Shown piece by piece: positions 17,716 through 61,298 of a stretch of DNA of 64,000 bases. Numbering within the stretch: position 1 is the stretch's first letter; every line of letters begins with the position of its first letter. This DNA is from Pseudomaricurvus alkylphenolicus (lineage in GTDB: Bacteria; Pseudomonadota; Gammaproteobacteria; Pseudomonadales; Cellvibrionaceae), in the NCBI RefSeq assembly GCF_011683955.1, contig NZ_JAAQPI010000001.1, positions 1,116,001-1,180,000 on the forward strand, read 5' to 3'. Made by a program: the position numbers and the translations under genes. The notes beneath the pieces are model-generated. The model was not told the origin of the DNA, ran no database searches, and saw nothing but the letters and a program-made list of their open reading frames with translations.

Positions 17716-18783
17716 TTACAGGGGATTGTTTTCGGGGCGTGGCATCATCACTCCCGGGCCAGGGCACTGGTCGCGGTTTACGCCGTATACACACATGTCA
17801 TTGATCATGTAGGACGGATAACCCTCCGGATAGGGATCGGAGTGGGTGGCAAACCATTGCATCGGCACGGTAAAGACCAGAAACATGCTGATATGCACAT
17901 AACCAAACAGCGCCAGGAACTTGACCCACTGCTTTTGGAAGCGGCTGATTTTGAGCGTATCCAAACCCCGGTCGACAAATGTCTGGCCTTTATCATCCCG
18001 GTACAGCAACAGAATCATGGTGGCACCAATGGTAAAACCGCCGTAGAAAATGCCTTCGGTTAAGGGAAACTGATAGGTTTCTCCCGCGAACAGGGTCAGT
18101 TCGCGAATACCGCCGGGGTAGGCATAGACACCGGTGCGCAACAGCAGGGATTCAAAAACGGTGTCGAGCAGGATCAGGATCAACACCCCGATGGTGGCCA
18201 GCATCGGTTTGCTGATGGCCGGGCGTTTTTCTTTGATCTTGTTCAACAGCGCCAATACCGGGAAGCACAGGCAGTAACCGATAATGGTGTAGCCAACTAC
18301 GATCAGCAACAGGGGTTCCGGCAGATTGCTGCCGTTGGGGCTGGTCCAGCCCGGCGTGGAACCCAGTGTCCAGGTACCCATATTAAACATGTAGCTGTTG
18401 TAGAGCACATGGGCGGAGGTGTAGTTCATCATCGGGTCCTGGAAAAACAAGGTCAGCCAACAGATATAAAGCATACCCGTGGTGGTTAACTGTTTTTCCC
18501 GTATCCAGGGCCGGATCACCACCAACCACATGGCCACGACACCCAGCATCAAGGTAACGATCTGGACCCAATAAATAAAGGTGGCCTGAAGTGCTGGCAG
18601 AGGGTCGGGGCCTGGGTCAACGGAGTGGAAGTGGGGGCCGCTTATCCAGGTTGCCAGTACATAGACAATAAAGGCCAGAACCAGCGCACCGGCCCGCGAC
18701 CAATAGATGACAGGAGGTGTGGGTTTGGCATCGAGGGGAGTCGGGGTCAACAGCTTCAGGTTGGGTTCGGTGGCACTGGTCAT
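17716..18783 (-). CDS. AveC-like integral membrane protein (paralogue 1)
   Basis: A 355-residue membrane protein with about seven to eight hydrophobic helices. Strongly conserved loops are shared with the gene at 60234: DPGPDP, DPMMNYTSAHVLYNSY, NMGTWTLGSTPGWTSP, RTGVYAYPGGIRELTLFAGE, THSDPYPEGYPSYMINDM and QCPGPG. I recognise these as features of the AveC-like 'spirocyclase' family, named after the avermectin protein and common but uncharacterised in mycobacteria. AveC itself acts in spiroketal formation, and the function of other members is unknown. It is first in the minus-strand operon with the flavin oxidoreductase, Pyr4-like and AraC genes, and divergent from the NorE/F-like pair. The pattern of conserved Asp, Asn, Trp and Gly in loops looks like an active site, not a mere channel (inference). 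Confidence 0.65.
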   Translation of the reverse strand: MTSATEPNLKLLTPTPLDAKPTPPVIYWSRAGALVLAFIVYVLATWISGPHFHSVDPGPDPLPALQATFIYWVQIVTLMLGVVAMWLVVIRPWIREKQLTTTGMLYICWLTLFFQDPMMNYTSAHVLYNSYMFNMGTWTLGSTPGWTSPNGSNLPEPLLLIVVGYTIIGYCLCFPVLALLNKIKEKRPAISKPMLATIGVLILILLDTVFESLLLRTGVYAYPGGIRELTLFAGETYQFPLTEGIFYGGFTIGATMILLLYRDDKGQTFVDRGLDTLKISRFQKQWVKFLALFGYVHISMFLVFTVPMQWFATHSDPYPEGYPSYMINDMCVYGVNRDQCPGPGVMMPRPENNPL

Positions 18784-33486: not shown

Positions 33487-34416
33487 ATGTACGACCAATT
33501 ATCTCGTATTGATCTGAACTTACTCATTGCCCTTCAGGTGTTGCTGGAGGAGCGGAATACAACTAAAGCCGCTGAACGGATGTTTATCACTCAGTCAGCA
33601 ATGAGCAAGACACTCAACCGGCTCCGTCAGGTTTTCGACGATGAGTTGTTTACTCGACAAGGTTTTGGTCTCAAACCGACTCCCAAAGCAGAGCAGCTTG
33701 CCAGACCGCTGCAAGAAACGCTGAAAACCGTGTATGGCATGGTTCACCCGACGCCATTTGACCCAGCCTCCGCCAGAGGTGTCATTCATCTGGGGATTAC
33801 GGAACCCACGAGCATATGCGTTGTTCCCGCGCTTCTACAAATTCTGGAACAACAAGCTCCCAATGTAATCCTGGCCTCGCACAACCTGGTTGGGGACTAT
33901 CGGGAGTCCTTGCAAAGCGGACTATTGGATTTTTATTTGTATCAGCTTGAAACGGGTCCAGAGTTGGTGAGCAATAAAGTCGGCTCTCTGAAACCTTTCT
34001 GTATCATGAGAAAGAACCACCCTCTGAGCGATAAGGAGTACATAGATTGGAATGAACTCCGTACCATAAGAAAAGTTATATACTCTCTGCCCAATGTGGG
34101 TATTGAAACCTGGTCTAGCTATATGAAGGACGCGGAAGTTCAGGAGGCTCAAAATCATTGTGCACTGGAAACCACGCAGCTTCTCCTGGGGATTGAGGTC
34201 TTGCTGAATTCGGAAGCTGTCATGCTGGGATCGATCGGAATGCTTGATCTGGTCGCATGCGGCGACAAGCTCACAGCCAAACCGATAAAAAATATTCCTC
34301 CAGAGGCCGAAACCATTGACATGTACCTTACACAACATCTCCGAACACTTAACCTCCCTCTGCACCAATGGTTTACCGAAAAGATTGCAGAAGTGGCAGC
34401 GGATACGCTCAGGTAA
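33487..34416 (+). CDS. LysR-family transcriptional regulator
   Basis: A 309-residue LysR regulator. The N-terminal winged helix-turn-helix spans residues ~5-65 (LSRIDLNLLIALQVLLEERN, TKAAERMFITQSAMSKTLNRL) and is followed by a LysR substrate-binding domain. It is a clear paralogue of the LysR at 34432, with which it lies tail to tail (16-bp gap). It is divergent from the TonB receptor at 30810 and is its most likely regulator. LeuO/NodD-like proteins of this subgroup respond to aromatic or lipophilic effectors; the effector here is unknown. Confidence 0.88.
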   Translation: MYDQLSRIDLNLLIALQVLLEERNTTKAAERMFITQSAMSKTLNRLRQVFDDELFTRQGFGLKPTPKAEQLARPLQETLKTVYGMVHPTPFDPASARGVIHLGITEPTSICVVPALLQILEQQAPNVILASHNLVGDYRESLQSGLLDFYLYQLETGPELVSNKVGSLKPFCIMRKNHPLSDKEYIDWNELRTIRKVIYSLPNVGIETWSSYMKDAEVQEAQNHCALETTQLLLGIEVLLNSEAVMLGSIGMLDLVACGDKLTAKPIKNIPPEAETIDMYLTQHLRTLNLPLHQWFTEKIAEVAADTLR

Positions 34417-35460: not shown

Positions 35461-36501
35461 TTATCTGGCAAAGGTGGTAACGATATTCTTGAAAGCGTCT
35501 TCACTCTCTGCTGCACTCAGGGGAGGCACATAGGGCGTGTGCAGAATCAGGTGAGGAATGGCCTCTTGGTACTCGTCAATCTGCGCTTTGGCTTCTTCGG
35601 GGGTGCCGCTGATGGAGAATTTCTTAACCAGGGCATCTGAAGTAACATCGGCCAGAGCGGCGGGACCGCCTTGGAACAGGGCCTCAGCGACCTTACGTTG
35701 ATCATCACCGAGACCATGTTGTTCGCAGATCTCTGCGGCGGTGGGGTAGGCAACATAGCAGCCGACCTGGATTCTGGCTCGTCGCATGGCCTCTTCTCGA
35801 TCCTCCGAGATGCTGCAAATCACGTAGGAGGCGATATCAACGTCGCTGGGGTCGCGACCGGCTTTCTCAGCAGCTTCGTCTACCTGAGGGATAATAATGT
35901 CACGTACGTGTTCTGGCGGTAGTAACCAGGCCAAAACGCCATCGCAGCTGCGGCCCGCCAAGCGCAGCATTGCCGGACGCACTGCACCGAGATAGACCGG
36001 GATGCGGGGGCGGGTCAGGGTGCGGCCACCAAACGGGTTAAAGGGTGGTGTGCTAAAACGATAAAACTCGCCTTGAAATTCTTTGGCCTCACCGGTATGC
36101 ATGTGATCCCAATAAAGACGCAACACCTGAATATACTCTTTCATTCGGGCGGCTGGCCGGTCGATGTCGACACCATTGAAGTGCTCAGCAAAAGCGGGCC
36201 CGCCAATACTGGTGGCAATCAGCATGCGACCATCGGATAACTCGTCTACATCAGCGGCGGCATTTGCCATCTCAAAGGGGGTGCGCTGCGCTGCGGTGGC
36301 CAGGCCGGTGCACAATTTGATGTTCTTGGTTTGCGTCGCCGCGAGTGCGTGCATTACAAAGGCATTGCGGTAAAACTCATAACCCCAGACGGAATCAAAA
36401 CCTGCCTGGTCTGCCAGGGAAGCCAACTCCGGGAATTTGTGCATGGGTTGGTTGATGCCAGGCATGGTAATGCCGAGTTGGGATTTTCTTTTGTGTGCCA
36501 T
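35461..36501 (-). CDS. LLM-class (luciferase-like) F420-dependent oxidoreductase
   Basis: A 346-residue TIM-barrel protein of the bacterial luciferase-like superfamily: LGITMPGINQPMHKFPELA at the start, then GFDSVWGYEFY, IKLCTGLATAAQRTPFEMA and GRMLIATSIGGPAF. Proteins with these features are mostly F420-dependent in actinobacteria, for example the glucose-6-phosphate dehydrogenase and mycolic-acid reductase types. The divergent neighbour makes F420 precursors, which strongly supports F420 rather than FMN as cofactor. AGGAAAAG precedes the ATG. The reaction is a hydride transfer at a carbonyl, alcohol or C=C; the substrate is unknown. It shares a 176-bp divergent promoter region with the F420 biosynthesis fusion gene. 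Confidence 0.85.
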   Translation of the reverse strand: MAHKRKSQLGITMPGINQPMHKFPELASLADQAGFDSVWGYEFYRNAFVMHALAATQTKNIKLCTGLATAAQRTPFEMANAAADVDELSDGRMLIATSIGGPAFAEHFNGVDIDRPAARMKEYIQVLRLYWDHMHTGEAKEFQGEFYRFSTPPFNPFGGRTLTRPRIPVYLGAVRPAMLRLAGRSCDGVLAWLLPPEHVRDIIIPQVDEAAEKAGRDPSDVDIASYVICSISEDREEAMRRARIQVGCYVAYPTAAEICEQHGLGDDQRKVAEALFQGGPAALADVTSDALVKKFSISGTPEEAKAQIDEYQEAIPHLILHTPYVPPLSAAESEDAFKNIVTTFAR

Positions 36502-36677: not shown

Positions 36678-39600
36678 ATGTCGATATCAGCAGAGAGTCC
36701 CTGGGCGTTGATCCCTGTTAAGCGGTTCACTGAGGCCAAGAAACGGCTAAGGCAGGGTTTGCACCAGAAGTATGGTGTATCCGCAGAGGCTTTGGCGCGG
36801 GCGATGCTGATGGATGTGGTGGAGTCGGTGTCCGGAGTTTCAGATATTGCCGGTGTGGCTGTGGTGACTTCAGAAACGAGCATATCGCAATCCCTACCCA
36901 ATGTCAGGGTTATCCCTGAGCCTCCTGGTTGCGATATGAATGGCGCAATTGCAGAGGGATTGCAGACCCTTTCTGAGGACGGTGTCAAACGTGTAGTCAT
37001 CTTGCCCGCCGATATTCCTTTGCTCACCAGGAATGATCTTGAGCAAGCGCTTCGGGAGCTGGACTTGCACCGTCTGGGGGGCATACCTTCCTATGACGAA
37101 AAGGGCACGAATCTACTCATATTGGATACCGATACTGGATTTACACCTCAGTTCGGTGTGGCCAGTTTTCAGAAACACCTTCAGCAGTGCAGAGAACTGG
37201 GTATTGACCCTGCCATCGCTCAGATAAATGGCATCAGCCGTGATATGGATTATCTGGAAGATGTGGATGCGTTCTTCGAGGATATGTCTAATAGGGATAA
37301 CGCTTTTGCCAGTCACACCTATTGTTTGCTGTATGCCGCTGTTCATGGAGGAACGACGCTGCAGGAGATTGAGCGGGATTCTTTAGCGCAACTTAAGGCA
37401 ATGGCAGCCGATCTTCGTGACCAGCATTTTGGCAATGTGATCACCTATTCTCGAAAGGTGTTTATTCCTTTGACGCGATTGTGCCGAGATGTGTGCCACT
37501 ATTGCACATTCGCCACCACACCCGGGCATGTGGATTCTCCGTATATGAGTCCTGAAGCCGTCTTGGCTATTGCGCATCGAGGCAAAAAAATGGGCTGCAA
37601 AGAGGTGTTGTTGACATTGGGCGAGAAGCCGGAGCGGCGCTATCGGGTGGCCAGGCAAGCCCTAGAGAAAATGGGCTTCAACTCCACTCTGGAGTACGTC
37701 GCCCATATTGCCGGTCGGGTGCTGCAAGAGACAGGGTTATTGCCCCATATCAATGCCGGTTGCATGAGCCTTGATGATTACAAAATGCTGCGACCCGTCT
37801 CTGCCTCCATGGGCTTGATGCTTGAAAGCGTCTCGCCCCGATTGTGCCAAAAGGGTAACGCCCATTTTGGCTCGCCCGATAAGGAGCCAGGGGTTCGCCT
37901 AAAAGCACTGGCTGACGCGGGTCGGGCCAAGGTACCCATGACCACGGGTATTCTTATTGGCATTGGTGAAACCCGGCAGGAGCGGATCGATTCTCTGTTG
38001 GCCATCCGTGAATTGCATCAACGCTACGGACACATTCAAGAGGTGATCGTACAAAACTTTGTCGCCAAAGAGGGCACAAAGATGGCAAATGCCGTGGAAC
38101 CAGATAATGACGATCTATTGTGGACGATCGCCGTGGCGAGATTGATTCTGGGTGCCCAAATGAGCATCCAGGTTCCCCCGAATCTCAATGGTGGCAATTT
38201 GCAGAGACTGATCAATGCCGGGATTAACGACTGGGGGGGTGTTTCACCACTGACCCCGGATCACGTCAACCCGGAATCACCCTGGCCCCAGATTGACATA
38301 CTGGCGTCGGAAACCGCTGCCACGGGAAAGATTCTGCAACAAAGGCTGACGATTTATCCTCAATTTCTCTGGCAGAAAGCGCACTGGCTGGACTCGGGCC
38401 TATGGCCCGCCGTGCTCAATCTGTCAGATGGGCAGGGCCTGGCAAGGCAGGACAACTGGGTCAGTGGCGTCAGTGAACATCCGACGCCGACGGTACGAGA
38501 GCAGGTATTGGCAAAGAAAGTGGCCGCAACAACGCCCAGCATTCGGGTCATACTTGATAAGTATCAGTCCCATCCGACAAAAGCACTGTCTGAAGGGGAG
38601 ATTGCACGACTGTTCTCTGCACGGGGTGATGACTTCGCAGCGATATGCTCTGTTGCCGATGATATGCGCGCACTGACTAGCGGTGATAGCGTCAGCTACG
38701 TGGTCAACAGAAACATAAACTATACCAATATCTGTTCGTTCAGCTGCTCGTTTTGTGCGTTTTCCAAAGGTAAGAAACACGGGGGCAGCGGTGATGCACC
38801 CTACCTGAAATCACCTGGGGACGTCGCTCACTTGGCGAGAGAAGCGTCGGTCAAAGGCGCTGCTGAAGTTTGCCTTCAGGGTGGTATTCATCCCAGTTTT
38901 ACGGGCCAAACTTACCTCGACATTTGCCGAGCCGTCAAAGAGGCAGAGCCTGACCTGCACATTCATGCGTTTTCTCCGCTGGAGGTCTGGCACGGAGCGC
39001 ACACCTTGGGCATATCGGTGAAGGATTTCTTGCTGGCGTTGAAATCCGTCGGATTGCGATCGTTACCGGGAACGGCGGCAGAAATTCTGCACGGGCAAGT
39101 TCGAAGTGAGATCTGCCCAGACAAGCTCAGTTCCGAGCAATGGTTGTCAGTCATAGAAACGGCCCATGAACTCGATCTACATACAACGGCGACGATTATG
39201 TTTGGGCATGTGGATACTTACGAACACTGGGCGGCGCACCTGCTAAAAATTCGCCGTCTGCAATCGCGAACCGGAGGCTTTACCGAATTCGTACCACTGC
39301 CCTTTGTTGCCCATGAGGCACCGGTTTATAAAAGAGGGCGTGCCAGACAGGGTCCGACGCTGCGCGAGGCCATTCTAATGCACGCCGTGTCCCGCATTGT
39401 GTTTCACGGATTGATCGACAATATCCAGAGTTCCTGGGTAAAGATGGGGTTGGAGGGTGCGGCACTGTGCCTGCACGCAGGCGCCAATGACCTGGGCGGT
39501 GTGCTGATGAACGAGAGTATTACTCGAGCTGCCGGCGCAAAACATGGGCAGTTTATGGACGAGTATTCTTTGGTCGAGAAAATTCAAGCCTCCGGAAGGC

Positions 39601-39707
39601 AACCCCAGCGGCGCTCCACGTTGTATCAGCGACTGGCACAAACGGGTGGCGTCCCGGCTGCACAATCCTACCCCGGTGATCAGATGATTGAGCTGGTCGC
39701 TGTTTAA
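36678..39707 (+). CDS. CofC-CofG-CofH fusion (F420 biosynthesis: guanylyltransferase plus FO synthase)
   Basis: A 1009-residue three-part enzyme. Residues 1-~205 are CofC/FbiD-like guanylyltransferase (IPVKRFTEAKKRL, VVILPADIPLL with D112, EKGTNLLIL, FGVASFQKHL, DYLEDVDAF). Residues ~225-545 are radical-SAM CofG with C269-x3-C273-x2-C276 (LCRDVCHYCTFAT). Residues ~615-1000 are radical-SAM CofH with C686-x3-C690-x2-C693 (NICSFSCSFCAFSKGKK). All key cysteines are present. CofG and CofH together make the deazaflavin FO from tyrosine and a ribityl-uracil; CofC activates the lactyl-type side-chain precursor. The CofG-CofH fusion is the actinobacterial FbiC layout; adding CofC in front is unusual. 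ATG 36678 (AAGAGA upstream) was chosen because the N-terminal extension before it has no family similarity. CofD and CofE are not in the window. Confidence 0.93.
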   Translation: MSISAESPWALIPVKRFTEAKKRLRQGLHQKYGVSAEALARAMLMDVVESVSGVSDIAGVAVVTSETSISQSLPNVRVIPEPPGCDMNGAIAEGLQTLSEDGVKRVVILPADIPLLTRNDLEQALRELDLHRLGGIPSYDEKGTNLLILDTDTGFTPQFGVASFQKHLQQCRELGIDPAIAQINGISRDMDYLEDVDAFFEDMSNRDNAFASHTYCLLYAAVHGGTTLQEIERDSLAQLKAMAADLRDQHFGNVITYSRKVFIPLTRLCRDVCHYCTFATTPGHVDSPYMSPEAVLAIAHRGKKMGCKEVLLTLGEKPERRYRVARQALEKMGFNSTLEYVAHIAGRVLQETGLLPHINAGCMSLDDYKMLRPVSASMGLMLESVSPRLCQKGNAHFGSPDKEPGVRLKALADAGRAKVPMTTGILIGIGETRQERIDSLLAIRELHQRYGHIQEVIVQNFVAKEGTKMANAVEPDNDDLLWTIAVARLILGAQMSIQVPPNLNGGNLQRLINAGINDWGGVSPLTPDHVNPESPWPQIDILASETAATGKILQQRLTIYPQFLWQKAHWLDSGLWPAVLNLSDGQGLARQDNWVSGVSEHPTPTVREQVLAKKVAATTPSIRVILDKYQSHPTKALSEGEIARLFSARGDDFAAICSVADDMRALTSGDSVSYVVNRNINYTNICSFSCSFCAFSKGKKHGGSGDAPYLKSPGDVAHLAREASVKGAAEVCLQGGIHPSFTGQTYLDICRAVKEAEPDLHIHAFSPLEVWHGAHTLGISVKDFLLALKSVGLRSLPGTAAEILHGQVRSEICPDKLSSEQWLSVIETAHELDLHTTATIMFGHVDTYEHWAAHLLKIRRLQSRTGGFTEFVPLPFVAHEAPVYKRGRARQGPTLREAILMHAVSRIVFHGLIDNIQSSWVKMGLEGAALCLHAGANDLGGVLMNESITRAAGAKHGQFMDEYSLVEKIQASGRQPQRRSTLYQRLAQTGGVPAAQSYPGDQMIELVAV

Positions 39708-45608: not shown

Positions 45609-46619
45609 TTATCTCCGTGGGTTCATGGCCCGCACATAGTGTTGCCAGAAGCACTCCTGATGATCTCCGTGGGTCACCAGGCCATCGTACTCCCAACGGG
45701 TGAGGGAAATCACCGAACTGAAGTTATGCCAGGTATGCCATTCGGCCGAGGCCCTGGCCTCGCCCCGGATCAGGAAACTTCGGTCCATGGCATCGACCAG
45801 TTCCATTTCCAGCGTCTGGACGTAGAGGGAGTTGGGATCGCGAACGGTCTTCTTGAGGGCGTTGACAATGGGCACCATTTCGCCCTCGGTGTACACCCAG
45901 CCGCCCTTGACGGTCTCACCGCCGGGTATTTCCAGGATGCCGGCCCATTCCGGATCGGAGTCCGGCGAGTCGAAGGCGGTGCAGCCAAAGGCAAAGTCGT
46001 CGTTGAAGACGCCGGTCATCCAGGCCATGGCCGGAAAGTCCTGGTGCACCTCGGGGCGGGGGGCGCCCCAGGAGCGGTCGCGAACAGTGTAACAATCCAC
46101 TTCATAATCGTTACCCAGCAATCGCAACTGGCCCTTCGCGCGCAGGGGCTGCTCAAGGTGCAGACCGCTGCTGAGCAACATGGGCGCGGTTACCGCCTGG
46201 TAGTGAATGTCGAACGAGTTGTTCTGCTTAGGGTCGCTGTAGCGGATACGATATCTTTTGAGGGGCTCCAGCACCTGGGCGCGATAACTGTTGTCCAGCG
46301 TATAGTCATGCAGGTCGTTGCTAAGACACTCGTCGCTCATAAAGGTGACGAAGTCGTACAGCTCACACTGCAGGTTGTAGCGCTTGGTGCCCTGCCAGGC
46401 CCAGGCGCCGCCGGTCACAACACCCAGGTTGGGGTGGTGCCACATGTAGCAGAGGCCGTGAATATTTTCTTCCGGGATATTAAAGCCGAAATACTGGGTT
46501 TCTGTCAGTGACGGGTCAGTGATCTGTTGCCGAAATTCAGGATGCAGAAAATCATCTGCAGCTGTTGCCGTTGCGAAGGCGGTGTTTTTCGTTTCCCAGA
46601 AGGGCTTGTCTTCAGCCAT
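45609..46619 (-). CDS. CrtC/AttH-like (DUF7064/7065-type) lipocalin-fold protein (copy 1)
   Basis: A 336-residue soluble protein without a signal sequence. Visible blocks are DDFLHPEFRQ, LTETQYFGFNIPEENIHG, CYMWHHPNLGVVTGG, YTVRDRSWGAPRPEV and a C-terminal TRWEYDGLVTHGDHQECFW. The DRSWG motif and all-beta composition point to the AttH/CrtC (carotenoid 1,2-hydratase-like) two-domain lipocalin group, which binds or hydrates isoprenoid-like lipids. I am less sure of the exact family. It forms a tight series with the kinase at 46632 (12 bp) and its paralogue at 48149. Enzymatic versus binding role is open. Confidence 0.55.
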   Translation of the reverse strand: MAEDKPFWETKNTAFATATAADDFLHPEFRQQITDPSLTETQYFGFNIPEENIHGLCYMWHHPNLGVVTGGAWAWQGTKRYNLQCELYDFVTFMSDECLSNDLHDYTLDNSYRAQVLEPLKRYRIRYSDPKQNNSFDIHYQAVTAPMLLSSGLHLEQPLRAKGQLRLLGNDYEVDCYTVRDRSWGAPRPEVHQDFPAMAWMTGVFNDDFAFGCTAFDSPDSDPEWAGILEIPGGETVKGGWVYTEGEMVPIVNALKKTVRDPNSLYVQTLEMELVDAMDRSFLIRGEARASAEWHTWHNFSSVISLTRWEYDGLVTHGDHQECFWQHYVRAMNPRR

Positions 46620-46631
46620 TTTCGCTTCTCC

Positions 46632-48137
46632 TTAATGTTCGTATTGTTCAATCAATTGCTGCGCTGCGTCGATAAACTGACTGATGTAAGTGAAGGGCAG
46701 CACTGCAAGCTTCAGCTCCTCCGCTTCGCCCCTGGCAAACAGGGTAGACATAATATTGGCCGCGGTGGCATTGCGGACCTGGCCCCAAATCTGAAAGTAG
46801 CGCAGGCGTTTTTCGTCGATATCGAACCCGCTTTCCCGTGTGTAGCTCGTCATAAATCGATCCCAATCAAGCAGATGACCGACGGTGTTCTTGATATAGG
46901 CCAGATCTTCAGCCGGGTCGCCCACATGCACAAACTCCCAGTCCACCAGGCAACTGAGGTCGCCTTTCACCAACAGCATATTTTGGAAACCGATATCTCC
47001 GTGCAGCAGCACCGGATTTCCGTCAACTTGGGGAATATTGTCCAGTAGCCAGCCGTAGAGACAGGCCAGCGCCGGGGAGGGAGTATGGTCACTGCTCAGG
47101 TACATGCGGTACCACTCGTCGATATACTCGTGCACCACCTCCTGGGTGGAGTTCTGCCAGGACTTCAGGCAAATGCTGCTGGTCAGGTTTCCCAGGGATG
47201 TCAGTGGTGGCAGACTGTGGAGCTGCGCACAGGCAAGGGCAAGGGTGTCAACCAGCTTTTCAGAAACCGCTTGATGGGAGGAGAACACGGTGCCTCCGGT
47301 TTCCCCCGGTGATCGCCGCATGACGATAAAATCTCCGCCGGGCAGTTGCGGGTGATCGGTATCCAGCCACAGGGCATCGGGTGCCGGGAAGCCGCTTGCG
47401 TGTACGGCTCGAATGACGGCGTATTCCTTGTCGACGGTATGGCAGTCGTTTTCCAGGCCGTCGCTGGTGTAGTCGCGGCGAATCACGTAATCCCCATCGA
47501 GCGCTTTGCCACTGGCGCTAAAGAGAATCGTCTGTTTGCCAAAACCACCGGACAGGGACTTAAATTCGGTGACGATAAGGTCAGCTTCACTGAAACGCTC
47601 ACGCAGGTAGGATTGCCATTGATCGGTATCAATGTCGGTTGCCGACGTGTCCGATTCTTCCATGCGGTCGGGCGTGTTCATATGTTCTTGAAGATCCTTG
47701 GCTTCCCAACGCCCCATAATGCCGGCTAATGAATGTCGGGTAGCTTCGGAGACTTCGTCGGCAGCAGCAACGGCGACCAAGGCTTGTTCGAGTGTGACCA
47801 AATTCTGTCGCCACTGTTCTTCCCGGGCGCTAAGGCAGCGCTCCTCGTTATGATGAAGTAATGCCTTTCGCAATTGCTCGAAGGGCTGGACCAGTGCAGC
47901 GGAAACTCTCCCATCATTGTTGAGCAGCACCACTGCGTCGTTCAAGGTGGCAGCAAGAGTCGCCTCCTGTTTTTCGATAAAGGCCAGGTTCTGGTGCTCA
48001 CGCCAATACAGCATCTTCAGGCAGGCTTCGATCACCTGGGCTGGAGATCCGGCTTGATGGGCGTCGGGCAGGTTGGGGATAATCCTGGCAAATTCTTTCT
48101 GTATGGCGGCCAGTTTGTGCACGGCGGGAAACAGCAT
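46632..48137 (-). CDS. APH-family phosphotransferase with ~150-residue N-terminal extension
   Basis: A 501-residue protein. The C-terminal ~330 residues are an aminoglycoside-phosphotransferase/choline-kinase fold with a nucleotide-binding start (LSGGFGKQTILFS), catalytic loop LLHGDIGFQNML (H379, D381, N386) and metal-binding DWE at ~399-401. The N-terminal ~150 residues are helical (LYWREHQNLAFIEKQEATLA) and of unknown function. ATG 48137 is chosen, as it leaves a 12-bp gap to the gene before. Relatives in actinobacteria and marine proteobacteria accompany acyl-CoA dehydrogenases and are thought to phosphorylate a hydroxylated metabolite. Here it is sandwiched between two CrtC/AttH-like proteins, so a phosphorylated lipid or terpenoid intermediate is a possibility (inference). 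Confidence 0.75.
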   Translation of the reverse strand: MLFPAVHKLAAIQKEFARIIPNLPDAHQAGSPAQVIEACLKMLYWREHQNLAFIEKQEATLAATLNDAVVLLNNDGRVSAALVQPFEQLRKALLHHNEERCLSAREEQWRQNLVTLEQALVAVAAADEVSEATRHSLAGIMGRWEAKDLQEHMNTPDRMEESDTSATDIDTDQWQSYLRERFSEADLIVTEFKSLSGGFGKQTILFSASGKALDGDYVIRRDYTSDGLENDCHTVDKEYAVIRAVHASGFPAPDALWLDTDHPQLPGGDFIVMRRSPGETGGTVFSSHQAVSEKLVDTLALACAQLHSLPPLTSLGNLTSSICLKSWQNSTQEVVHEYIDEWYRMYLSSDHTPSPALACLYGWLLDNIPQVDGNPVLLHGDIGFQNMLLVKGDLSCLVDWEFVHVGDPAEDLAYIKNTVGHLLDWDRFMTSYTRESGFDIDEKRLRYFQIWGQVRNATAANIMSTLFARGEAEELKLAVLPFTYISQFIDAAQQLIEQYEH

Positions 48138-48148
48138 GGAGGGGTACC

Positions 48149-49156
48149 TCAGTCGGTAAATTGGTGGATATAGTCGGTCCATTGGCATTCCTGGGTGTCG
48201 CCCCAGCCAACCCGGCTGTCCCATTCCCAGCGGGTCAGGTTCAGGTGCACCAGACAGTTAGGCCATCCGGACCAGGGCAGGCCCGCCTGGGTGGTGCCTC
48301 GAATCCGATAGTCGCGCCCGCGACTGTCGGTGAGTTCGATCTCGTGTGTCAGGGGCCGACCGCTGTGGCGATCCCTGCGGGTGATCTTGCGGCCGCCGGT
48401 GGCGCGCAGCAGTTCTCCGTCGCGATACACCCAGCCGTCGTGAAAGGAATTTTCCGCGGGCCAGTCGAAGCTGCCTAGCCATTCCGGTTTGAGGTCGGGG
48501 TGATCGAAGGCGCTGAAATTAAACGCAAAGTTCTCGTCAAAGGTGCCGGTCATCCAGGTCATCGGCGGGATCGGGTTATGGCCTTCCGGACGCGGTTGGC
48601 CCCAGGAACGATCACGGACGTTAAAGGTGTTGTCGATGGTGTAACGCTTGCCTCGCAATACCAGTTCGCCCTGGTTGCGCATGGCCTGTTCGAAATGGAG
48701 ATTGTTACCACGCATGGCGACTGGCATGATGGCTGTGCTGGTCATATCCAGAAAATTCTCACGCGCTGGATCTTGATAGCGAACGCGCATGGATTTTCCA
48801 GGTTCGATCACGTCTACCTGATAACTGTTGGGCAGGCGAAAGCTATGCAGATCATTGGTAATGATGTCGCTCTGTTTACTGTAGGCGCGCATATCGAACA
48901 GTTCGGCCTGCAAATGCGAGCGCTTGATACCCTGGCAAACGAACAATCCGCCGGTGGCGGTGTCGAGATTGGGATGCAGCCACAGGTAACCGAAGCCATA
49001 GATGTTTGCCTCGGGAATATTGAGGCCGAAGTACTGAGTCTCCGTTAAGCTGTCGTCGTTGACAGGTGACTGCGGGTGAAGAAAATCATCAGCACCCGTA
49101 AATTCGCCGAAGCCGGCGCCGATGGTTTTAAACCAGTTTTGGTTGTCGCAGGACAT
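48149..49156 (-). CDS. CrtC/AttH-like (DUF7064/7065-type) lipocalin-fold protein (copy 2)
   Basis: A 335-residue paralogue of the protein at 45609, with DDFLHPQSP, LTETQYFGLNIPEANIYG, GYLWLHPNLDTATGG, FNVRDRSWGQPRPEGH and the ending TRWEWDSRVGWGDTQECQW. Start ATG 49156 aligns the N-terminus exactly with copy 1 and has AAAGAAGA upstream; ATG 49180 lacks both. It is first of a three-gene minus-strand unit with the kinase and copy 1, downstream of the TonB receptor. Two copies around one kinase suggest a heterodimer or two related steps. Confidence 0.55.
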   Translation of the reverse strand: MSCDNQNWFKTIGAGFGEFTGADDFLHPQSPVNDDSLTETQYFGLNIPEANIYGFGYLWLHPNLDTATGGLFVCQGIKRSHLQAELFDMRAYSKQSDIITNDLHSFRLPNSYQVDVIEPGKSMRVRYQDPARENFLDMTSTAIMPVAMRGNNLHFEQAMRNQGELVLRGKRYTIDNTFNVRDRSWGQPRPEGHNPIPPMTWMTGTFDENFAFNFSAFDHPDLKPEWLGSFDWPAENSFHDGWVYRDGELLRATGGRKITRRDRHSGRPLTHEIELTDSRGRDYRIRGTTQAGLPWSGWPNCLVHLNLTRWEWDSRVGWGDTQECQWTDYIHQFTD

Positions 49157-60196: not shown

Positions 60197-60233
60197 TATG
60201 GAAGAGAATTTAAATGGTTCGGTAACTTCAACA

Positions 60234-61298
60234 ATGAACGAAGCAACGCAATCCATGGGGGCGTTTACCACCCCCAGGAGGCTCACTCAATCCAAAACCC
60301 TGCCCGTGGTGTTCTGGGCCTGGGCAGGTGCCATTATTCTGGTGCTGGAGCTCAATATCTGGGGCAACTGGATTTTTGGCCCTAATTTTACACCCACCGA
60401 TCCCGGGCCGGATCCCATCTCTGAACTGGAGTTGTGGTACCTGTACGGCATTCAAGCGCTGTCGGTGCTGTTCTGGTTCTATGCCGTTTGGGCCTGGATA
60501 CTGAAACCTTCAATGCAGGAGGGCAAATTGACCACCGATGCCATGCTGGCTATCTGCTGCTGGACCATGTGGATCTGGGACCCGAGCATGAACTACAACA
60601 CCACAACCGTGCTTTATAACTCCTACGCGGTGAATATGGGATCCTGGACTTTGGGCAGCTGGCCAGGCTGGACCAGCCCGGCGGGGAATCTGCTGCCAGA
60701 ACCGATCCTGGTACTGGCGACGGGTTACCTGTGCTGGGTCTATTTGATGGTGGTGTTTCCCTGTTTTCTGCTCAAGAAGGTCAAGGCGAGATATCCGAAC
60801 CTTGGCTTCGTGCCCATGTTGGCACTCCTGATTGCCGGCGTCATGCTGACCGATCTGGTGGTCGAAGTGTTGATCCTTCGGACTGGTGTTTACGCCTATC
60901 CTGGTGGAATACGGGAAGTCACCTTGTTTGCCGGTGAAACCTACCAATTTCCCTTAACTGAGATGTTGACTTTTGGTGGCGCCGTGGCGGTGGTCGCCGC
61001 GCTGCGTTTTTTCAAGAATGACAAAGGCGAGACATTTGTCGATCGTGGTCTGGATTCATTGAATATTGGTCAGTTTTGCCAGCAGTGGATCAAGTTTCTT
61101 GGACTGTTCGGTTTTACCCATACGGCTTTTTTCCTGGTGTTTTTTGTTCCCAATATGTGGTTCGCCACCCACAGTGATCCGTGGCCGGAAGGCTACCCCT
61201 CGTACATGATCAATGGCATGTGCAAATACGGCGATGACCGCAATCAGTGCCCGGGTCCCGGCATTTCCATCCCCAGACCTGAAAACAATCCTTTTTAA
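60234..61298 (+). CDS. AveC-like integral membrane protein (paralogue 2)
   Basis: A 354-residue membrane protein with the same conserved loops as the gene at 17716: DPGPDP, DPSMNYNTTTVLYNSY, NMGSWTLGSWPGWTSP, RTGVYAYPGGIREVTLFAGE, DRGLDSLNIGQF, THSDPWPEGYPSYMING and QCPGPG. I set the start at ATG 60234 because the N-terminus then matches the paralogue residue for residue in length (MNEATQ versus MTSATE). An upstream ATG at 60198 would place the coding region against the TAGTA palindrome. The family name comes from avermectin AveC; most members have no assigned function. It is followed 22 bp later by a PPPSP membrane protein, forming an apparent two-gene operon. Confidence 0.65.
   Translation: MNEATQSMGAFTTPRRLTQSKTLPVVFWAWAGAIILVLELNIWGNWIFGPNFTPTDPGPDPISELELWYLYGIQALSVLFWFYAVWAWILKPSMQEGKLTTDAMLAICCWTMWIWDPSMNYNTTTVLYNSYAVNMGSWTLGSWPGWTSPAGNLLPEPILVLATGYLCWVYLMVVFPCFLLKKVKARYPNLGFVPMLALLIAGVMLTDLVVEVLILRTGVYAYPGGIREVTLFAGETYQFPLTEMLTFGGAVAVVAALRFFKNDKGETFVDRGLDSLNIGQFCQQWIKFLGLFGFTHTAFFLVFFVPNMWFATHSDPWPEGYPSYMINGMCKYGDDRNQCPGPGISIPRPENNPF

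What the first reader, a model, noticed from the sequence alone, without database searches (positions are those of the whole stretch)
36678..39707. Single-chain CofC-CofG-CofH fusion for F420 biosynthesis
One 1009-residue protein carries a guanylyltransferase domain and both radical-SAM halves of FO synthase, with all six cluster cysteines intact (269/273/276 and 686/690/693). Actinobacteria fuse only CofG and CofH (FbiC). A further CofC fusion joins an FO-making enzyme to the enzyme that activates the side chain, which could channel or co-regulate two branches. F420 in gammaproteobacteria is itself uncommon.
Basis: partly seen in the sequence, partly recalled or inferred. Interest (0 to 1): 0.75.

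Follow-up and report, generated by a model that had tools for sequence, protein, structure and literature searches.

The report
Three-in-one enzyme for cofactor F420
A gammaproteobacterium carries the first steps of both branches of the cofactor F420 pathway on one protein; such fusions of neighbouring genes recur in related bacteria, and this genome unusually holds four sets of these genes.

Summary
The fusion is real. Window 36678-39707 (+) encodes one uninterrupted 1009-residue protein: an N-terminal CofC guanylyltransferase, then CofG and CofH. All six cluster cysteines and the metal- and substrate-binding residues of CofC are present. It is not unique: I read 26 CofC-CofG-CofH fusions from 25 genomes, including a second one in this genome. 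In an order sample at least 19 of 101 genomes with FO synthase carry it. In relatives cofC often lies directly upstream of cofGH as a separate gene (49 of 80 scanned loci). The fused rows are scattered on the CofGH tree (26 rows, 11 changes), so fusion, or splitting, recurred. CofC residues predict a 2-PL/PEP-type enzyme, not the 3PG type. The two halves make the two substrates of CofD, encoded 188 kb away, so the fusion couples supply; it cannot feed one half's product to the other. The odder fact is genomic: four npdG-cofC-cofGH sets, two of them fused, but one cofD and one cofE. Other FO-synthase genomes sampled in the order and family show a single copy (one has an extra broken piece). The four sets are about 60% identical in CofGH and not one clade. 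The papers I could search named no such fusion. Verdict: new variant of a known enzyme.

The parts
36678..39707 (+). Fused CofC-CofG-CofH gene, 1009 aa
   Evidence: AlphaFold2 mean pLDDT 90.6, pTM 0.86
36699..37289 (+). CofC guanylyltransferase domain, about residues 8-204; D112, T144, N145, G160, S163, D189, D191 in the active site by alignment
   Evidence: TIGR03552 over cut-off; Foldseek to 7p97 TMt 0.87-0.88 and 6bwh TMt 0.83-0.84; residues
37290..37412 (+). Linker, about residues 205-245; pLDDT lowest at 222-227
   Evidence: frames at the junction
37413..38432 (+). CofG radical-SAM half, about residues 246-585, C269/C273/C276
   Evidence: TIGR03550 510.8 bits
38568..39647 (+). CofH radical-SAM half, about residues 631-990, C686/C690/C693
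   Evidence: TIGR03551 542.5 bits
39733..40398 (+). npdG, NADPH:F420 reductase, 25 bases after the fusion's stop; likely same operon (inferred)
   Evidence: TIGR01915 199.9 bits, cut-off 149.8; sequence between genes
35461..36501 (-). Luciferase-like (LLM) oxidoreductase, divergent; candidate F420 user, cofactor not established
   Evidence: PF00296 222.6 bits; best NCBIfam TIGR03617 183.8 bits, below its cut-off 278.15
33487..34416 (+). LysR-type regulator near the locus
   Evidence: PF00126, PF03466
34432..35403 (-). LysR-type regulator next to the LLM gene
   Evidence: PF00126, PF03466

Best explanation
It is a genuine trifunctional enzyme that supplies both substrates of CofD from one polypeptide. 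The N-terminal domain activates a C3 acid (2-phospholactate or phosphoenolpyruvate) with GTP. The CofH and CofG halves make FO from tyrosine and 5-amino-6-ribitylaminouracil. A separate CofD, encoded 188 kb away, joins the two, and a separate CofE adds glutamates. The gene arose by merging cofC and cofGH, which lie side by side in many related operons; this happened repeatedly. Here it sits in a reduced set with npdG, one of four in the genome, which probably raises F420 supply locally beside genes for F420-using oxidoreductases. Shown: the reading frame, the domains, the active-site residues, the recurrence, and four sets with one cofD and one cofE. Inferred: catalysis, the C3 acid used, equal-dose supply as the benefit, and local supply as the reason for four sets.
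For: All three NCBIfam models are over cut-off. The CofC fold matches solved CofC/FbiD structures, and seven active-site positions are kept. All 26 fused CofC domains read keep the three aspartates and the serine. In G005, G087 and G088 the fused copy is the only PF01983 match at E <= 0.001, so it must do the job there if F420 is made. Fused pairs show dN/dS below 1 for the CofC domain wherever computable: 0.178, 0.097, 0.286 and 0.119 in 4 of 5 pairs. 57 of 92 CofGH loci have an unfused cofC upstream, and the usual order is npdG-cofE-cofD-cofC-cofGH. The genome has one CofD, one CofE, four CofC and four CofGH, with four NpdG over cut-off, one beside each set.
Against: No activity or F420 measurement exists. 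This CofC is the weakest of the four in the genome by model score (121.1 bits against 140.7-153.9) and only 19.5-28.8% identical to the other three, and those could cover for it. No FbiB-type reductase domain is over cut-off (best 54.2 bits, cut-off 249.55), so a PEP route lacks an identified reduction step. The LLM neighbour falls below its F420-subfamily cut-offs. The CofC domain is less conserved than CofGH.
Confidence: 0.75

Rival explanations
1. The fusion is a hand-off scaffold: CofD docks on the CofC domain and receives the unstable guanylylated acid there and FO from the neighbouring CofG domain, so the fusion is selected for transfer to CofD and not just for equal dose.
For: PMC8764529 (passages) reports that CofC keeps its product tightly bound and works closely with CofD; the fused state recurs; in 15 of the 16 fused order loci L111-L126 a CofD match of over 300 bits lies directly upstream (the 16th, L123, shows only a cut-off piece).
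Against: A low-confidence stretch between CofC and CofG in the model; FbiC's own halves reportedly work by diffusion (PMC8498797 passage); in this genome cofD is not near the fusion; recurrent fusion of adjacent genes needs no channel.
Confidence: 0.15
2. The CofC domain of this copy is decaying or only structural; the other CofC copies in the genome do the guanylyl transfer and the fused protein is effectively an FO synthase.
For: Three other CofC in the genome; the lowest CofC model score of the four.
Against: D112, D189, D191, S163, T144 and N145 all intact; over the curated cut-off; confident fold.
Confidence: 0.12
3. Sequencing or assembly error joined two overlapping genes.
For: Related genes can overlap out of frame, e.g. 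L015, so one wrong base count could merge them.
Against: The same fusion in 24 other genomes and a second, diverged fusion in this genome; by my reading both the CofC tail and the CofGH head are kept in frame.
Confidence: 0.03
4. The ancestor was fused and many lineages split it again.
For: Parsimony counts changes, not directions.
Against: The unfused state is the commoner one in both halves of the midpoint-rooted tree, and several fused rows sit inside unfused groups.
Confidence: 0.1

Closest known systems
FbiC (bifunctional CofG-CofH FO synthase; NCBIfam PRK09234/NF006687)
   Same: Both radical-SAM halves in the same order, over cut-off (1098.2 against 1018 bits)
   Different: A complete CofC domain is added at the N-terminus
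CofC/FbiD guanylyltransferases (Mtb FbiD 6BWG/6BWH; Mycetohabitans CofC 7P97; M. mazei 2I5E)
   Same: Fold (TMt 0.80-0.88) and active-site residues; glycine at the specificity position, as in the 2-PL/PEP type
   Different: Fused to FO synthase; 23-27% identical in the structural alignment
FbiB (CofE fused to a reductase domain)
   Same: Another fusion of two F420 pathway steps (review passages)
   Different: Different steps; the CofE of this genome is a single domain of 256 aa

Membership tests
CofGH / FbiC FO synthase | CofG and CofH domains over curated cut-offs in one chain | tested here: met
CofGH / FbiC FO synthase | Two CxxxCxxC cluster motifs | tested here: met
CofGH / FbiC FO synthase | Makes FO | not testable with these tools
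   Needs an assay
CofC / FbiD guanylyltransferase | TIGR03552 over curated cut-off | tested here: met
   116.7 bits, cut-off 105
CofC / FbiD guanylyltransferase | Three-aspartate metal site and carboxylate-binding serine | tested here: met
   D112, D189, D191, S163; residue roles from PMC6450877 and PMC8764529 passages
3PG-type CofC (Mycetohabitans) | Ser or Thr at the S162 position | tested here: not met
   Glycine at 160; glycine in all 26 fused rows read
Complete F420 pathway in this genome | CofD and CofE present | tested here: met
   One each
Complete F420 pathway in this genome | Dehydro-F420-0 reductase if PEP is used | tested here: inconclusive
   No TIGR03553 match over cut-off, best 54.2 bits
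NpdG | TIGR01915 over cut-off next to the fusion | tested here: met
   199.9 bits, cut-off 149.8

The most novel reading that the evidence does not exclude
The four npdG-cofC-cofGH sets are not mere dosage. They are independently acquired modules that feed one shared CofD-CofE pair under different conditions, so that F420 supply, and perhaps the C3 acid attached, is switched by substrate; the fused versions are hand-off scaffolds that dock that single CofD.
Probability: 0.15. Interest if true: 0.7.

Novelty: new variant of a known kind. Interest (0 to 1): 0.45.

Why it matters
A recurrent triple fusion points to a benefit from making CofD's two substrates together, and gives a ready single-gene part for making F420 in other hosts. 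A genome with four FO-synthase sets but one cofD and cofE makes it testable what limits F420 supply in Gram-negative bacteria; why Proteobacteria make this cofactor is named as an open question in the review PMC8498797 (passage).

Tried and rejected
Artefact by frameshift: rejected on recurrence and junction anatomy, without reads. 3PG-F420 type: rejected by the glycine at the diagnostic position. Recent duplication of the four sets: rejected; holding the four as one clade costs 79.4 log units, p-AU 1.55e-05, on a quick tree of 43 rows that I picked by hand out of the 110. One origin of all fusions: rejected on that tree for its 12 fused rows, p-AU 0.000185. One origin of this genome's two fusions is undecided: p-AU 0.0843, with the window copy sister to the unfused L015. 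Promoter and terminator scans gave fewer sites than the shuffle means (2 against 3.8; 1 against 3.4) and were not used. My first dN/dS run included codons outside the CofC domain, gave 0.16-0.36 for CofC, and was replaced. Paper searches, seen as listings with titles and the start of abstracts, showed no paper that I recognised as describing the triple fusion. Of three papers I read passages (PMC8498797; PMC6450877; PMC8764529), and of the last also the outline with abstract. All places of 'fusion' in PMC8498797 were shown and none names a CofC-CofGH fusion. A paper on bacterial F420 distribution that I recall as relevant was not held, so a prior description there is possible.

Full report
What is there. 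One frame, 36678-39707 (+), encodes 1009 residues. CofC, CofG and CofH models are all over their curated cut-offs, and Pfam agrees on CofC, two radical-SAM stretches and the CofH C-terminal region. All six cysteines are present. AlphaFold2 with a 96-row alignment gives mean pLDDT 90.6 and pTM 0.86; residues 222-227 are below 50, which suggests a flexible linker. Foldseek matches the radical-SAM part to MqnE (6xi9, best TMt 0.86) and the N-terminal part to 7p97 (TMt 0.87-0.88), 6bwh (0.83-0.84) and 2i5e (0.80) (the table gives no ranges in the model, so the assignment to the two parts is mine).

Is CofC functional? The positions that bind metal and substrate in Mtb FbiD and Mycetohabitans CofC (passages of PMC6450877, and PMC8764529) map to D112, T144, N145, G160, S163, D189 and D191 in the window protein. 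The mapping rests on the printed PDB-chain alignments and my motif matching. The three aspartates and the serine are kept in 26 of 26 fused and 57 of 57 unfused rows; the lysine and threonine positions vary (fused: K 20, R 5, N 1; T 21, S 5). Glycine at 160 predicts the 2-PL/PEP type; the paper ties Ser or Thr there to 3-PG. In the three genomes G005, G087 and G088 the fused frame is the only PF01983 match at E <= 0.001. NG86 dN/dS on five fused pairs gave 0.178, 0.097, 0.286 and 0.119 for CofC (not computable in one pair) and 0.029, 0.054 and 0.086 for CofGH (not computable in two). Both parts are under purifying selection, CofC less strongly.

How common is it? Of 117 relatives, fused frames occur in the own genome, G005, G087 and G088. 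Among 390 genomes of the order, 101 have a CofH match at 1e-60, and 100 of these are over cut-off. I read 20 loci picked for long frames, plus G088 and G087 already fetched; 16 of the 20 were fused and 4 were not. With G087, G088 and the own genome that makes 19 of 101, a lower bound since shorter and contig-cut frames were not all read. Of the other 14 of 369 class genomes with CofC over cut-off, none had a fused frame. In all, 26 fused loci from 25 genomes were read.

How did it arise? In relatives the usual order is npdG-cofE-cofD-cofC-cofGH: of 92 loci, CofD lies within 3 kb in 69, CofE in 67 and NpdG in 60. The genes can overlap; in L015, the window copy's sister in the tree, the cofC stop lies just inside the start of cofGH in another frame. 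On a 110-row CofGH tree the 26 fused rows need 11 changes, 7 of them forced by starred branches (quick search; an earlier 92-row tree with 10 fused rows needed 7, 6 forced). The changes could include splits. A single clade of 12 fused rows was rejected.

The genome. The window lies in an 8.88 Mb, 99.6% complete assembly with 2.1% contamination. The genome has four CofC, four CofGH, four NpdG over cut-off, one CofD and one CofE. Sets 1 (window) and 2 (C11:595783-598773) are fused; sets 3 (C11:22458-25405) and 4 (C70:35828-38850) are not. Three sets and the cofE-cofD pair lie on one contig, so contamination does not explain them. In the order sample every other genome with a match shows one, except G610, whose second match is a partial piece with a stop; the single match of G525 is also partial with a stop. 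In the family sample 13 of 144 genomes have it, the other 12 once. In a phylum sample 7 of 398 match at 1e-60, 4 over cut-off; only one other genome, G893, has two matches, both under cut-off. The four CofGH are 58-62% identical, the four CofC 19.5-29.8%. They are not one clade. Set 3 groups with family members G028 and G030, which keep the full operon, so set 3 plus the lone cofE-cofD is probably the inherited pathway, split. The others look like separate acquisitions or old paralogues that lack cofE-cofD; this is inference.

Neighbours. The window set has npdG 25 bases downstream and an LLM oxidoreductase divergently upstream. Set 2 has two LLM genes nearby. The genome has seven LLM matches in all. 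LysR-type regulators lie within the stretches read around all four sets (set 1 by Pfam, the others by my reading of the sequence). This fits locally regulated supply but does not show it.

Mechanism. FO and the guanylylated acid meet only at CofD (pathway as in PMC6450877, passages). The fusion therefore cannot pass one half's product to the other; it makes both CofD substrates at equal dose, and might hand both to a docked CofD. I hold the simple reading most likely. No activity was measured.

Noticed in passing
L017, L018, L021, L024, L025, L026, L028, L030, L035, L036, L037, L038, L043, L045, L049 (CofC upstream of cofGH): 15 of 57 unfused CofC rows carry Asp (12) or Asn (3) at the specificity position that is Gly in 2-PL/PEP types and Ser/Thr in 3PG types, in the motif F/Y-[DN]-G-x-S. 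They may attach a different C3 acid; the passages of PMC8764529 that I saw describe a S162E mutant but no natural Asp or Asn there.
   Followed up: partly
G000:C70:35136-38850 (L096): Set 4 sits in a cluster that by eye includes glutamate-mutase-like, methylaspartate-ammonia-lyase-like, CoA-transferase-like and lyase-like genes and a nitroreductase-like gene; names are my reading, not a family search.
   Followed up: no
G002:C48, G003:C18, G004:C2: Three genus mates have CofH in frames of 403-431 aa, so CofG and CofH are probably separate genes there; with G005 and the own genome, one genus would hold split, double and triple forms.
   Followed up: no
window 17716-18783 (-), 60198-61298 (+): The first is an AveC-like spirocyclase match (PF17198, 176.2 bits); the second looks similar by my reading. 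The window also holds several AraC-type regulators and TonB-type receptors by my reading.
   Followed up: no
window 45609-46619 (-) and 46632-48224 (-): A DUF7064 protein beside an APH-family phosphotransferase-like protein; function not pursued.
   Followed up: no
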